Shown here piece by piece: positions 1 through 7,435 of a DNA stretch of 64,000 bases (positions within the stretch are counted from its first letter, which is position 1; the number at the start of each line of letters is the position of its first letter). The DNA is taken from positions 1 to 64,000 of the forward strand of contig DVKD01000039.1 of NCBI GenBank assembly GCA_018716285.1, written 5' to 3'. The notes beneath the pieces are model-generated. The model saw only the letters and a list, made by a program, of their open reading frames with translations. It was not told the origin of the DNA and did no database searches. The position numbers and the translations under genes are program-made. Origin of the DNA: Candidatus Merdivicinus faecavium. GTDB taxonomy: Bacteria > Bacillota > Clostridia > Oscillospirales > Ruminococcaceae.

Positions 1-15
1 GTAATTCTCTGCCAT
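1..15 (-). CDS. 5' end of a minus-strand gene running off the left edge (starts MAENY...)
   Basis: Reverse complement reads TAAGGAGGGTCCAT-ATGGCAGAGAATTAC: strong SD followed by ATG. Only five codons visible, so product cannot be assigned. Confidence 0.6.
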
Positions 16-184: not shown

Positions 185-213
185 TTGACAACGTCTGCAT
201 CCCGTGCTATACT
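185..213 (+). promoter_or_regulatory. Near-consensus sigma-A promoter driving the ORF-poor region
   Basis: TTGACA (185-190), 17 nt spacer, TATACT (208-213). Confidence 0.8.
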
Positions 214-266
214 ATAACCATAGAAGATAATCAAATATCTTCAAAGAAACAGAAAGGGTGATTCCG

Positions 267-317
267 ATGGACAATATTGAATCTTGTTTTATCCGAATCA
301 GCGGAGACCGTTCGTAA
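267..317 (+). CDS. Candidate 16-aa ORF (MDNIESCFIRISGDRS) at the 5' end of the candidate transcript
   Basis: Preceded by AAAGGGTGATTCCG, about 50 nt downstream of the predicted transcription start. Confidence 0.4.
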   Translation: MDNIESCFIRISGDRS

Positions 318-598
318 AACCTTTCGATGCAGATTTCTGAGAGAATTTTTCTTAAGTGAATCGATCCGTGAAAGCTTCCAGAAAATCATTTCAGCCAATG
401 CTTTCGTTAGAAGATCAGCGAATCAAAAAGGTAAATTCCAGAAGACATCTCATGTTTGGAGGACTTCCCTCATTTGAATTTTACGAAACCGTTTGATTAT
501 TTTCTATTTGAAATAATCCGCTGATTCCGGATAAACGACATCGCTACAATTGAATAGCCCAGACGGGCAAAACCAAACATTCTGAACCAGACAGCAAA

Positions 599-993
599 CA
601 GGAGTGAGTCCAATGGAGAAGGATCCCTTCCCCAAATAACCGATGTCATCGTTTTCCCTATCTGACGTACAACCGTTCCCATTCGAAATTCGGAGCGAAC
701 AGCGTAAGACAGAAAGCCGAAACGCACGATTCATTTGCAGGAGTGAGTCCCATGAAATAGTCATTCCCTCTTTCCCGCTTATCATTCGCAGAAATGAAGC
801 ATAAGAAAAGGAATGAGTCCCATGTACGCATGACCCTGTTGATAAAGAGATTTATCGTCTGATTCAGGAGTGAGTCCCATGCAGTAATCAGTCCTTATCA
901 ATAGAAACCGCTTTTCGAAAATTATCCGTGAATGTCTCTTCGCAGGATATCTAGGAAAACGGAACTGAAATTGATGCAGGAGTGAGTCCGATG
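599..993 (+). repeat. Five dispersed copies of a 17-nt SD/start motif (CAGGAGTGAGTCCCATG)
   Basis: Copies at 599-615, 738-754, 808-824, 865-881, 977-993; a diverged relative at 253-269. Each ATG is followed by a short ORF: MEKDPFPK*, MK*, MYA*, MQ*, MK*. Confidence 0.85.
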
Positions 994-1307
994 AAGTAGT
1001 ATTTCTCCTTTCGCCGCAAGCAGAAAACGGTCTTACTATGAAAGCAAAAAGGCAGTCAGAATCGTGAGTGCAAAAGCGATCGCAGATGACCGAAACAAAA
1101 GCTGCGGGCAGAAACAGGAGACCGATCCCGTTCCAGATAGAAACAGTCATTTTCCATAATCTAGCCTGTCCGGAAATTATCCCGAAACAGTGAAAGCAGA
1201 CGATGCAGTTTTAGATGACAGAAATTGCATAAGCATTGAAAAGACTGATGGAAACTGGAAAGGAAATCATTATTCGTGGAGGAAATCATTGTTGATTAGT
1301 GAGATGT

Positions 1308-1338
1308 AGCGCCGCCTTTCGTTGGAAAAGGCGGCGCT
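1308..1338. terminator. Hairpin at the end of the ORF-poor region
   Basis: AGCGCCGCCTTT-cgttgga-AAAGGCGGCGCT, 12 bp perfect stem; following U-tract is weak, so termination is uncertain. Confidence 0.5.
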
Positions 1339-1435
1339 TGTGGTTATATTTCACATCCTCCCCCCTTTTTTGCGGTATATTTTTCCGGTTTTGGGAAAAG
1401 CTATGGGCAAACAAACCGCAAAAGGGGGATTTTTC

Positions 1436-2773
1436 ATGCTTCATATCCGCACCCGCGTGCGGCTCGTCACCTTTGCCGCCGCCGCGATCCTGGTCTGCGG
1501 CGGGATGGCGTGGCAAAACTACCGGATGGCCCAAAAGTACAAAAACGCCCTGGAGGTCTCTTACCTCCGGGCGATGGAGGATCTCTCCTCCTACACTGAA
1601 AACATCTCTTCCGCCCTTATCAAGGGGATGTACGCCGGCACCCCGGAGCAGCTCAACGCCCTGACCGCCAAGCTCTGGAAGGAAGCCTCCGCCGCCAAGG
1701 TCGCCCTCTCCCAGATCCCGACCAGCCGCTACAACCTCGAAAACACCTACAAATTCCTCTCCCAGGTCGGCGAATACGCCGTTTCCCTCGCGAAAAAGTC
1801 GGAAAACGGGGAGCAGCTTTCCGACGAGGACCGGGAAAACCTGAAAGCCCTGTCCGGCTACGCGCAGGGCCTTGAGGAGAGCATGCTCATCATCCAGGAC
1901 GAGGTCCGCAGCGGGCGGATGAGCATCGGCGCAGCCGAGGAGATGGCGGACGGCATCCAGGCGGACGCCGCCTCCGACCTGGCCGAGGATCTCGCCGAAT
2001 TCGAGGAGGGCTTCACCGCCTACCCCACCCTCATCTATGACGGCCCCTTCTCCGACCACCTGCTCGAGATCGAGCCCCGCCGGCTGGAGGGCGAGGAGGA
2101 AATCACCCTCGCAGAGGCGCGGGAAAAGGCCGCCGCGGCCTTTAACGTCGATTCCGGCCTCATGTCCAACGAGTCGGAGGAACACAGCAGCATGCCCTCC
2201 TTCACCTTCTCTTTTGAAAACCGCTCGGCTGCCGTGACCATGCAGGGCGGCTACCTCAGCTACCTCACCGACCCGCGCACCCCCGGCGAACGCACTCTCA
2301 CGCCGGAGGAGGCGGTGGCCAAGGCGGAGAATTACCTGGCCTGGCTTGAGATCCCCGACATGCAGGTCACCTACTATGAAATCGCCGACAATGTCCTCAC
2401 CGCAAACTTCGCCTACACCGAGGGGGATGTGCTCTTCTATCCCGACCTCATCAAGGTGAGCGTCGCGATGGACAACGGCGGCATCCTCGGCTTTGACGCC
2501 CGGGCCTATCTGACGAGCAACTGCGAGCGCGGCCTTGCGGCGCCCCTGATCTCAGAGGAGGAGGCGCGCAAGTCGGTGAGCCCGGCCCTGGAAATCCAGA
2601 GCACCCGGCTCGCGGTCATCCCGTCGGACGGGAAACAGGAGCGCTACTGCTACGAATTCCACTGCCTGGCGGAAGACGGCGAAGAGCTCTTAGTCTACGT
2701 CAACGCCGATACCGGACGGGAGGAGCAGATCCTCATCCTCATGATCGACGAAAACGGGACCCTCGTCATCTGA
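1436..2773 (+). CDS. ypeB: Germination protein YpeB
   Basis: Translation from ATG 1436 (AGGGGG SD) has an N-terminal TM segment and YpeB-like sequence and PepSY-like repeats (MLHIRTRVRLVTFAAAAILVCGGMAWQNYRMAQKYKNALEVSYLRAMEDL...). Confidence 0.85.
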   Translation: MLHIRTRVRLVTFAAAAILVCGGMAWQNYRMAQKYKNALEVSYLRAMEDLSSYTENISSALIKGMYAGTPEQLNALTAKLWKEASAAKVALSQIPTSRYNLENTYKFLSQVGEYAVSLAKKSENGEQLSDEDRENLKALSGYAQGLEESMLIIQDEVRSGRMSIGAAEEMADGIQADAASDLAEDLAEFEEGFTAYPTLIYDGPFSDHLLEIEPRRLEGEEEITLAEAREKAAAAFNVDSGLMSNESEEHSSMPSFTFSFENRSAAVTMQGGYLSYLTDPRTPGERTLTPEEAVAKAENYLAWLEIPDMQVTYYEIADNVLTANFAYTEGDVLFYPDLIKVSVAMDNGGILGFDARAYLTSNCERGLAAPLISEEEARKSVSPALEIQSTRLAVIPSDGKQERYCYEFHCLAEDGEELLVYVNADTGREEQILILMIDENGTLVI

Positions 2774-6547: not shown

Positions 6548-7435
6548 TTACTCCACCGGGATGCCGTGCCGCTCGAGCAGCGCGCGGGAGACGTCGGCCA
6601 CCAGCTTGACGGCCGTTTCGGCGGCTTCCGGCGGCAGCAGCTCGGAGGTAGAAGTGGCTTCCGAGGAAAACTCGCCCTGATACCCAATCTCCTTGAGGGT
6701 TTCGAGAAACGCGTCCCAGTCGATGTTGCCGTAGCCGCAGACGAGGTGATCGTCCCGCTCCGACCAGTTGTCGTGGACGTGCAGGCATTTGAGCATCCCG
6801 CCCAGCTTGCGGGCGGCCAGGGAGGGCGATTCGCGGTGGATGTTGGAATGCCCGGTGTCGAGGCAGACGCAGACCCACTCGCTGTCAAGCCGGCGGGCGC
6901 ATTCGAGCATCTCCTCTATTGTCGAAAAGGTCGTCCGGCAGAGGCGCTTGACCGCCGGGTCCCAGCCGAACATATTCTCCAGCGCGATGGAGACCCTGTG
7001 CTTTTCAGCAAGCGGGAGCAGCTCACGGTAGAATTCCACATTGAGGGAGAGGTACTCCCCTGCCTTTTCCCCATTGATGCCGTCCGGGAACATGCGCGGA
7101 TGGATGACAAGGTACGGCGCGCCCAGGATCTCGCAGACCCGGAAGAACCGCCGCGTGACCTCCATCTTCCGCTGTACGACGGCCGGCGCGTCGCCGTAAA
7201 ACAGCATCGGCGCATGCGCCTGGGAAAAGATGATGCCGCTCTCATCCGCCGCCTTGCGGAGGGAATGCGCATACTCCTCCCAGCCGTCCTGCAGGTAAAT
7301 GCTGTCCGGCCCGTCGTGCAGGTAGCCGCTGTAGTCGAGGGCGCTGACCCCCAGCTCCGCGTAGCGGGCGACGGCCTGCCGCTCATCGCGGTACACCTTC
7401 CGCAGCATGTCCGAGCATACTCCAATTCTCATCAA
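6548..7435 (-). CDS. Sugar phosphate isomerase/epimerase (xylose isomerase-like TIM barrel)
   Basis: Motifs IHPRMFPDG, IALENMFGWDPAVKR, VCVCLDTGHSNIHRE, LKCLHVHDN typical of AP endonuclease 2 family. Confidence 0.85.
   Translation of the reverse strand: MMRIGVCSDMLRKVYRDERQAVARYAELGVSALDYSGYLHDGPDSIYLQDGWEEYAHSLRKAADESGIIFSQAHAPMLFYGDAPAVVQRKMEVTRRFFRVCEILGAPYLVIHPRMFPDGINGEKAGEYLSLNVEFYRELLPLAEKHRVSIALENMFGWDPAVKRLCRTTFSTIEEMLECARRLDSEWVCVCLDTGHSNIHRESPSLAARKLGGMLKCLHVHDNWSERDDHLVCGYGNIDWDAFLETLKEIGYQGEFSSEATSTSELLPPEAAETAVKLVADVSRALLERHGIPVE

What the first reader, a model, noticed from the sequence alone, without database searches (positions are those of the whole stretch)
220..1340. Array of SD-ATG minimal ORFs in an ORF-poor, strongly promoted transcript: candidate new RNA system
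Seen directly: five copies of CAGGAGTGAGTCC(C/A/G)ATG (599-615, 738-754, 808-824 as AAGGAATGAGTCCCATG, 865-881, 977-993) sit in otherwise unrelated sequence with irregular spacing (139, 70, 57, 112 nt); a diverged relative is at 253-269. Each has an SD at good spacing (AGGAG-8 nt-ATG), but the ORFs are nearly empty: MEKDPFPK*, MK* (ATG AAA TAG), MYA*, MQ* (ATG CAG TAA), MK* (ATG AAG TAG). A TTGACA-N17-TATACT promoter lies upstream and a 12-bp hairpin closes the region. Knowledge: two-codon minigenes with strong SDs (e.g. phage lambda bar) sequester ribosomes and peptidyl-tRNA. Inference: the transcript may be a ribosome- or initiation-sequestering RNA, or a large structured RNA in which these motifs are conserved loops.
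Basis: partly seen in the sequence, partly recalled or inferred. Interest (0 to 1): 0.88.

Follow-up and report, generated by a model that had tools for sequence, protein, structure and literature searches.

The report
RNA gene of phased two-codon minigenes
Beside a DUF1292 gene in Oscillospirales gut bacteria lies a roughly 1-kb RNA gene that encodes no ordinary protein but carries a row of ribosome-binding sites, each opening a reading frame of only about two codons; the row is conserved across dozens of genera with a spacing near 56 bases, and nothing like it was found in Rfam or the papers searched.

Summary
Window 220-1340 has its own promoter and a closing hairpin, no protein gene, and SD-ATG sites at the stated places. 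Relatives settle the nature of the motifs. All 7 genomes of the genus carry the region, and in the closest relative the motif-plus-minigene columns are 89% identical against 50% for their flanks. Arrays found by motif lie divergently upstream of DUF1292 in at least two families. An unbiased sample of 80 DUF1292-upstream regions has 68 SD-ATG-codon-stop minigenes on the sense strand against 5 on the antisense strand. Codon 2 varies, and TAA, TAG and TGA interchange, so ATG-codon-stop is selected as translation, not as an RNA loop. Successive sites repeat at about 56 nt (1x, 2x, 3x). The "spacer" UGAGUCC pairs with the rest of the 16S 3' tail (start-proximal extended SD). A second class of 10-16-codon ORFs is interleaved. 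Rfam has no match; arrays were not seen outside the order. Best reading: an RNA that docks a row of ribosomes which initiate, make about one peptide bond and terminate in place. Whether this buffers or senses ribosomes, or protects the RNA, is open. Expression is untested.

The parts
1..15 (-). First codons (ATG GCA GAG AAT TAC, MAENY) of the divergent DUF1292 gene, cut by the contig end
   Evidence: Window starts at contig C24 base 1; the genome's DUF1292 lies at the very start of contig C34; L084 orthologue hits PF06949, E=3.7e-17; same divergent arrangement in relatives
185..213 (+). Sigma-A promoter TTGACA-N17-TATACT (TG before -10)
   Evidence: conserved in all 7 aligned genus members
253..317 (+). 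First SD-start site GAAAGGGTGATTCCG-ATG and 16-codon ORF MDNIESCFIRISGDRS*
   Evidence: ORF kept in genus relatives as MDSIENCFIRISGKHS, MDSKESCLIRISSRLS and MDSIECSFVRINGDRS
495..518 (+). Hairpin GATTATTT-TCTATTTG-AAATAATC
   Evidence: sequence; conserved in the genus alignment
601..639 (+). Site 1: GGAGTGAGTCCA-ATG, 8-codon ORF MEKDPFPK*
   Evidence: frame and stop kept in G668 as MERNPLPD*
740..760 (+). Site 2: GGAGTGAGTCCC-ATG AAA TAG (MK*)
   Evidence: identical in G668
810..833 (+). Site 3: GGAATGAGTCCC-ATG TAC GCA TGA (MYA*), weakest copy
   Evidence: not conserved in the nearest relatives
867..887 (+). Site 4: GGAGTGAGTCCC-ATG CAG TAA (MQ*)
   Evidence: MQ* kept in G668
979..999 (+). 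Site 5: GGAGTGAGTCCG-ATG AAG TAG (MK*)
   Evidence: AAG to AAA in G668
1309..1337 (+). 12-bp hairpin GCGCCGCCTTTC-GTTGG-AAAAGGCGGCGC closing the transcript (terminator-like, imperfect U-run)
   Evidence: relatives have CGCCACC/GGTGGCG, a compensatory change
1436..2773 (+). Downstream gene ypeB (spore germination protein); not part of the unit, as the downstream gene differs between genera
   Evidence: Pfam PF14620, PF20769, PF03413; other downstream genes elsewhere

Best explanation
Window 220-1340 is an independently transcribed RNA gene of Oscillospirales whose working parts are a row of ribosome docking sites. Each site has a moderate SD plus a spacer (UGAGUCC) that goes on pairing with the single-stranded 16S 3' tail (5'-GGAUCACCUCC) almost up to the AUG. 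The ribosome starts, reads typically one further codon and meets a stop, so it terminates while its SD contact is still formed and can restart at once. Sites recur at about 56 nt or multiples, so the RNA would carry ribosomes side by side. Shown by comparison: selection for SD-AUG-codon-stop, the phasing, the 16S-tail complementarity, conservation and synteny. Inferred: that ribosomes occupy the sites and that the function is to hold or sense ribosomes (a ribosome buffer or parking RNA, perhaps in slow growth), rather than to make peptides.
For: DUF1292-anchored sample of 80 regions: 68 sense versus 5 antisense two-codon SD-ORFs, shuffles 19.4; motif-found set 77 versus 0, shuffles 7.6. SD-ATG ORF lengths on the sense strand peak at 2 codons (114 of 551) against 2 of 135 antisense; with CCN-ATG, 110 of 260 are two codons long. 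126 distinct sites: stops TAA 68, TAG 36, TGA 22; codon 2 drawn from 32 codons. Phasing: best period 56.5 nt, power 34.5 against a null maximum mean of 4.9, p<1/2000, still so without the two near-identical tandem loci. 16S-tail pairing: extra 4.45 kcal/mol at two-codon sites versus 1.13 when the spacer is shuffled, 2.03 at longer ORFs and 1.88 at 45 ordinary genes. Purifying selection: 89% versus 50% identity against the nearest relative. All 7 genus members carry the locus. A start-proximal extended SD-aSD helix is established for S. aureus ribosomes (PMC13009471). The unit has its own promoter and closing hairpin, and its downstream gene changes between genera.
Against: No RNA-seq or ribosome profiling was available, and abundance is unknown; a ribosome buffer would need a very abundant RNA. 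The total SD-aSD energy of the sites (-12.6) is about that of ordinary genes (-12.0), so they are not super-strong binders. Predicted accessibility of the sites is near background. 41 of 108 regions show no site under the strict definition. Some copies of the core lack the ATG. The loci are related, so part of the phasing may be inherited or come from tandem duplication. Interleaved 10-16-codon ORFs with partly conserved peptides hint that some peptides could matter.
Confidence: 0.42

Rival explanations
1. Ribosome roadblocks in cis. The RNA acts through other, structured parts; the minigenes only park ribosomes every 50-110 nt so that an otherwise untranslated 1-kb RNA escapes RNase J1/Y attack and Rho termination.
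For: Two-codon or short mini-ORFs protect mRNAs in cis: axe-txe, and the LEE4 six-codon ORF as reviewed there (PMC8708949). Initiating ribosomes protect hbs, and STAB-SD stabilises mRNA (cited in PMC7509114). The same minigene sits near the predicted 5' end of a different, solitary RNA of about 300 nt in Oscillibacter-type genomes. Conserved helices exist in the family.
Against: One 5' site should suffice against 5'-3' exonucleases. Between arrays of one genus the minigenes are the conserved part and the rest drifts, opposite to what is expected if the rest were the functional part.
Confidence: 0.28
2. A polycistronic micropeptide or leader-peptide gene: the 8-22-codon ORFs encode functional peptides or stalling sequences and the two-codon ORFs are couplers between them.
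For: Conserved short peptides such as HDLNI*, VRSDSF..L*, SKLKI*, with in-frame length changes; in group R a 13-codon ORF ends directly at the SD of the next two-codon ORF.
Against: Peptides differ strongly between genera; within the window only the 16- and 8-codon ORFs are of this kind; two-codon ORFs are the single most frequent length; no regulated gene follows.
Confidence: 0.13
3. Regulatory or toxic minigenes of the lambda bar type: dipeptidyl-tRNA drop-off depletes particular tRNAs.
For: Same two-codon design with SD; AAA and TAC are the commonest second codons.
Against: Codon 2 is drawn from 32 different codons, so no single tRNA is targeted; the locus is fixed in the genus and not tied to phages.
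Confidence: 0.07
4. Sponge or scaffold whose repeated GGA...UCC elements bind a protein (CsrA-like) or an sRNA, with no translation involved.
For: GGX..YCC positions are complementary somewhat more often than by chance (99 of 157 versus 82 expected, p=0.0006); the core also occurs without ATG.
Against: Does not explain conservation of a stop in frame after one free codon, ATG/GTG exchange, or TAA/TAG/TGA exchange.
Confidence: 0.08

Closest known systems
Two-codon minigenes: lambda bar (from memory), E. faecium axe-txe mg2, B. subtilis ycbK, EHEC LEE1 (PMC8708949)
   Same: SD followed by AUG, one codon and a stop; acts by ribosome occupancy or drop-off
   Different: Those are single elements (or a pair) in leaders of protein genes or phage transcripts; here they form arrays in a stand-alone RNA, phased at about 56 nt and conserved over many genera
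STAB-SD of cry3A and hbs ribosome protection (cited in PMC7509114)
   Same: Ribosome binding at an SD serves the RNA itself
   Different: One 5' site on a protein-coding mRNA; here several internal sites on an ORF-poor RNA
Start-proximal extended Shine-Dalgarno sites of S. aureus (PMC13009471)
   Same: mRNA spacer pairs with 16S nucleotides beyond CCUCC towards the AUG
   Different: Used there for ordinary genes; here shared by arrays of two-codon ORFs
Large bacterial ncRNAs OLE, ROOL, GOLLD, raiA (PMC12286853; OLE-bS21 in PMC12054373)
   Same: Large RNA without a protein gene; OLE carries an SD/anti-SD mimic and binds ribosomal protein bS21
   Different: No Rfam match; no comparable deeply conserved single fold seen; translation sites are the most conserved element
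CsrB/RsmY-type sponge RNAs with repeated GGA (from memory)
   Same: Many short GGA-containing repeats in one ncRNA
   Different: Here each repeat continues into AUG-codon-stop with exchangeable stops

Membership tests
Two-codon ribosome minigenes | SD at working distance, start codon, one codon, stop | tested here: met
   Window sites 2, 4 and 5 and 114 sense SD-ATG sites across 108 regions
Two-codon ribosome minigenes | Conserved because translated (stops interchange, codon 2 free) | tested here: met
   TAA/TAG/TGA 68/36/22; 32 second codons; one orthologous group-R site reads CAG, AAG, CAC, GGT or TAC before TAA/TGA
Two-codon ribosome minigenes | Ribosome occupancy or peptidyl-tRNA drop-off in the cell | not testable with these tools
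   needs ribosome profiling, toeprinting, Pth-limited strain
Rfam large RNAs (ROOL, GOLLD, OLE, raiA, HEARO) | Match to the covariance model | tested here: not met
   No gathering match in the window or over the array in other loci; best permissive hit at 1-1450 is a chance mir-129
cis-acting leader or attenuator | Constant regulated gene downstream in the same transcript | tested here: not met
   Downstream genes differ between genera; closing hairpin precedes ypeB in the window
STAB-SD / ribosome-protected RNA | RNA stability depends on ribosome binding at the SD | not testable with these tools
   needs half-life measurements with SD/AUG mutants
Decayed protein-coding gene | Residual long reading frame or protein homology | tested here: not met
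   16-24 stops per + frame over 1.1 kb; relatives show the same tiny ORFs
CsrA/Rsm sponge | GGA in a hairpin loop recognised by CsrA | tested here: inconclusive
   GGA is in a putative stem, not the loop; weak covariation; protein binding not testable

The most novel reading that the evidence does not exclude
A new class of bacterial RNA gene, a ribosome rack: a stand-alone RNA that lines up ribosomes at about 56-nt pitch on phased two-codon reading frames, where they cycle through initiation and termination without leaving, thereby buffering or reporting ribosome availability in Oscillospirales.
Probability: 0.35. Interest if true: 0.95.

Novelty: categorically new. Interest (0 to 1): 0.86.

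Why it matters
Single two-codon minigenes are known curiosities in leaders of other genes; an RNA gene built from phased arrays of them, kept across a family of gut bacteria and present in at least one further family, has not been described as far as Rfam 15 and the searched papers show. If ribosomes sit on it, it would be, to my knowledge, the first RNA known to hold ribosomes by repeated start-stop reading frames, and a natural system for studying termination, recycling and SD release. Its neighbourhood (divergent DUF1292, with 6S RNA close by in several loci) suggests a house-keeping role. It also warns that ORF-calling and ncRNA-calling pipelines can both miss such genes.

Tried and rejected
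Rfam at gathering and permissive thresholds: nothing real. Viral contigs: 38 single motif hits, no arrays. Class-wide motif search: beyond the order only three isolated single hits in 375 genomes. Chance origin of the motif: rejected by reversed-pattern and antisense controls. Mere hairpin or loop motif: disfavoured by stop-codon exchange, although a weak GGX/YCC complementarity exists. Super-strong SD capture: rejected, total pairing energy equals that of ordinary genes. Unusually open sites: not supported by local folding. A deep common fold: RNAalifold on one conserved block gives one 7-bp helix with a single both-sided change, too weak to claim. The 16S 3' end GGAUCACCUCCUUUCU was confirmed only in three family genomes; the other seven searched, the own assembly among them, gave no exact hit. 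Literature for DUF1292/YrzB with an ncRNA: none.

Full report
OBSERVATION. Four exact copies and one near copy of CAGGAGTGAGTCCNATG lie at 599-993, with a diverged one at 253-269. They follow a near-perfect promoter (185-213, 11 of 12) and precede a 12-bp hairpin (1309-1337) upstream of ypeB (1436-2773; Pfam YPEB domains). Region G+C is 42% against 61% for the window, and each forward frame has 16-24 stops. In the own genome the motif is found nowhere else above background, and no other SD-CCN-ATG-codon-stop site exists on either strand of the 64 kb.

RELATIVES. The motif AGGAGTGAGTCCNATG occurs in 17 of 301 genomes of the family, often in clusters of 2-4 exact copies, with no hit for the reversed pattern. 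All 7 genomes of the genus carry the locus. In the genus alignment the promoter, the first 16-codon ORF (MDxxE..xIRIxxxxS*), a short hairpin, the minigenes and the closing hairpin are conserved in most members; most of the rest is not. Against the nearest relative, motif-plus-minigene columns are 89% identical and the rest of 560-1100 is 50%. The second site is identical (MK*), the fourth keeps MQ*, the fifth changes AAG to the synonymous AAA, and the first keeps an 8-codon ORF (MEKDPFPK / MERNPLPD). The third copy of the window is not conserved.

SYNTENY AND RANGE. Arrays found by motif lie divergently upstream of a DUF1292 (YrzB-like) gene (PF06949); the exceptions among the loci checked are L229 and L115 (and L280, where none was seen on the stretch held). 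6S RNA lies nearby in several. The window starts at a contig end; DUF1292 of the same genome opens contig C34, and the window's first 15 bases read MAENY on the minus strand. The downstream gene varies between genera, so the transcript is not a leader of a fixed gene. Another family of the order (f24, L287) has the same arrangement. Of 375 genomes of the class outside the order, three have one isolated motif hit each and none an array. Family and order are given by the tool as kinship only; record titles of relatives read Oscillospiraceae, Ruminococcus, Clostridia, so 'Oscillospirales' is my reading of those titles.

THE READING FRAMES ARE SELECTED. To avoid searching by the motif, I took the divergent upstream region of DUF1292 from 80 further genomes. 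They hold 68 SD-ATG-codon-stop sites on the sense strand and 5 on the antisense strand (shuffles 19.4); the 28 motif-found regions hold 77 and 0 (shuffles 7.6). Across all, SD-ATG ORF lengths on the sense strand peak sharply at 2 codons (114 of 551) with a second peak at 10-14; antisense has 2 of 135. The two-codon class has the context CCN-ATG (110 of 260 such SD sites are two codons long), the longer class does not. Among 126 distinct two-codon sites, stops are TAA 68, TAG 36, TGA 22, and 32 different second codons occur, AAA, TAC, GCA and GAA most often. At one orthologous site of the Ruminococcus-like group the sequence reads ATG AAG TGA, ATG CAG TAA, ATG CAC TAA, ATG GGT TAA, ATG AAG TAA, ATG TAC TGA. 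ATG is replaced by GTG at one site. A structural loop would not behave so; start, one free codon, stop is what is kept.

PHASING. Distances between successive two- or three-codon sites cluster at 50-60 and 101-123 nt, with further values near 164-176 and 218-227; the best period is 56.5 nt (power 34.5, null maximum mean 4.9, none of 2000 jittered sets as high; 27.2 without L301 and L303, whose units are near-identical tandem copies). Because loci are related and some units are tandem duplicates, part of this may be inherited. In the Ruminococcus-like group two-codon and 11-14-codon ORFs alternate at about 50-63 nt, and a longer ORF often ends on the SD of the next two-codon ORF.

WHAT THE MOTIF IS. 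The conserved 'spacer' UGAGUCC is complementary to the rest of the unpaired 16S 3' tail: GGAG-UGA(G)UCC against 5'-GGAUCA(C)CUCC. Adding GGAU of the tail gains 4.45 kcal/mol at two-codon sites, 1.13 if the last nine bases are shuffled, 2.03 at the longer ORFs and 1.88 at 45 ordinary genes of the window. Total pairing (-12.6) equals that of ordinary genes (-12.0): pairing is moved towards the start codon rather than strengthened. Such start-proximal extended SD helices are real in S. aureus ribosomes (PMC13009471). The 16S end was confirmed in three family genomes only. Weak GGX/YCC self-complementarity exists as well.

MECHANISM. Shown by comparison: conserved sites for initiation and near-immediate termination, phased, in an RNA without an ordinary gene. 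Inferred: ribosomes bind, make one bond, terminate with the SD helix intact and re-start, so that the RNA carries a row of ribosomes. Purposes compatible with this are buffering or sensing of ribosomes (favoured, because the docking sites are the best conserved part and the flanks drift) or protection of the RNA itself (precedents: axe-txe, LEE4, hbs, STAB-SD; PMC8708949, PMC7509114). Peptides from the 8-22-codon ORFs may contribute. Nothing here shows that the RNA is made.

RELATED FIND. The same minigene opens a different, solitary RNA of roughly 300 nt in Oscillibacter- and Dysosmobacter-type genomes: a promoter, GGAGTGAGTCC(C/A)ATGGGCTAG about 10 nt from the likely start, a conserved middle, and a final 7-codon ORF (MDNPINE* and variants) before a terminator; Rfam has no match.

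VERDICT. A genuine, conserved and so far unnamed type of RNA gene. The part of the interpretation about minigene translation is well supported by comparison; the sequestration role is a reasonable, untested inference.

Noticed in passing
L118:1763-2095(+), L070:585-900(+), L107:4388-4722(-), L097:5335-5667(-), L122:195-531(-), L126:1325-1650(-), L074:5142-5450(+): Solitary RNA of about 300 nt with a 5' two-codon minigene (MG*) of the same motif, conserved CCAAAGACGAAACAYACCTCACTATGATGAGCC, and a 3' 7-codon ORF MDNPINE*/MDNPING* (ATG or TTG start) before a terminator; no Rfam match.
   Followed up: partly
L060, L063, L073, L076, L080, L095, L101, L110, L114: Very short RNA (about 110-130 nt) starting GGAGTGAGTCCAATGTACTAA (MY*) with a second tiny ORF (e.g. 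MSDPIIH*) and a strong terminator.
   Followed up: partly
L301:740-1110 and L303: Near-identical tandem units of about 55 nt, GAAATAGGTGTGACC-N-ATGGA(A/C)TAA, the cleanest form of the array.
   Followed up: partly
L229 (reverse strand, about 6860-6980): Array with another SD form, GAGGTA(C/T)(A/G)GTCC(C/G)ATG-codon-TGA; no DUF1292 seen next to it on the stretch held.
   Followed up: no
L220-L224, L102, L105, L094: Interleaved conserved tiny peptides: MxxFxYAYHDLNI*, VRSDSFxAxL*, MKxxxSxLKI*; HDLNI also in L084.
   Followed up: partly
L216:3532-3736, L217:4394-4598, L102:831-1031, L084:2585-2785: 6S RNA (RF00013) lies on the other side of DUF1292 from the array in several loci.
   Followed up: no
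L222:1-320: RNase P RNA (bacterial class A) on the same small contig as an array.
   Followed up: no
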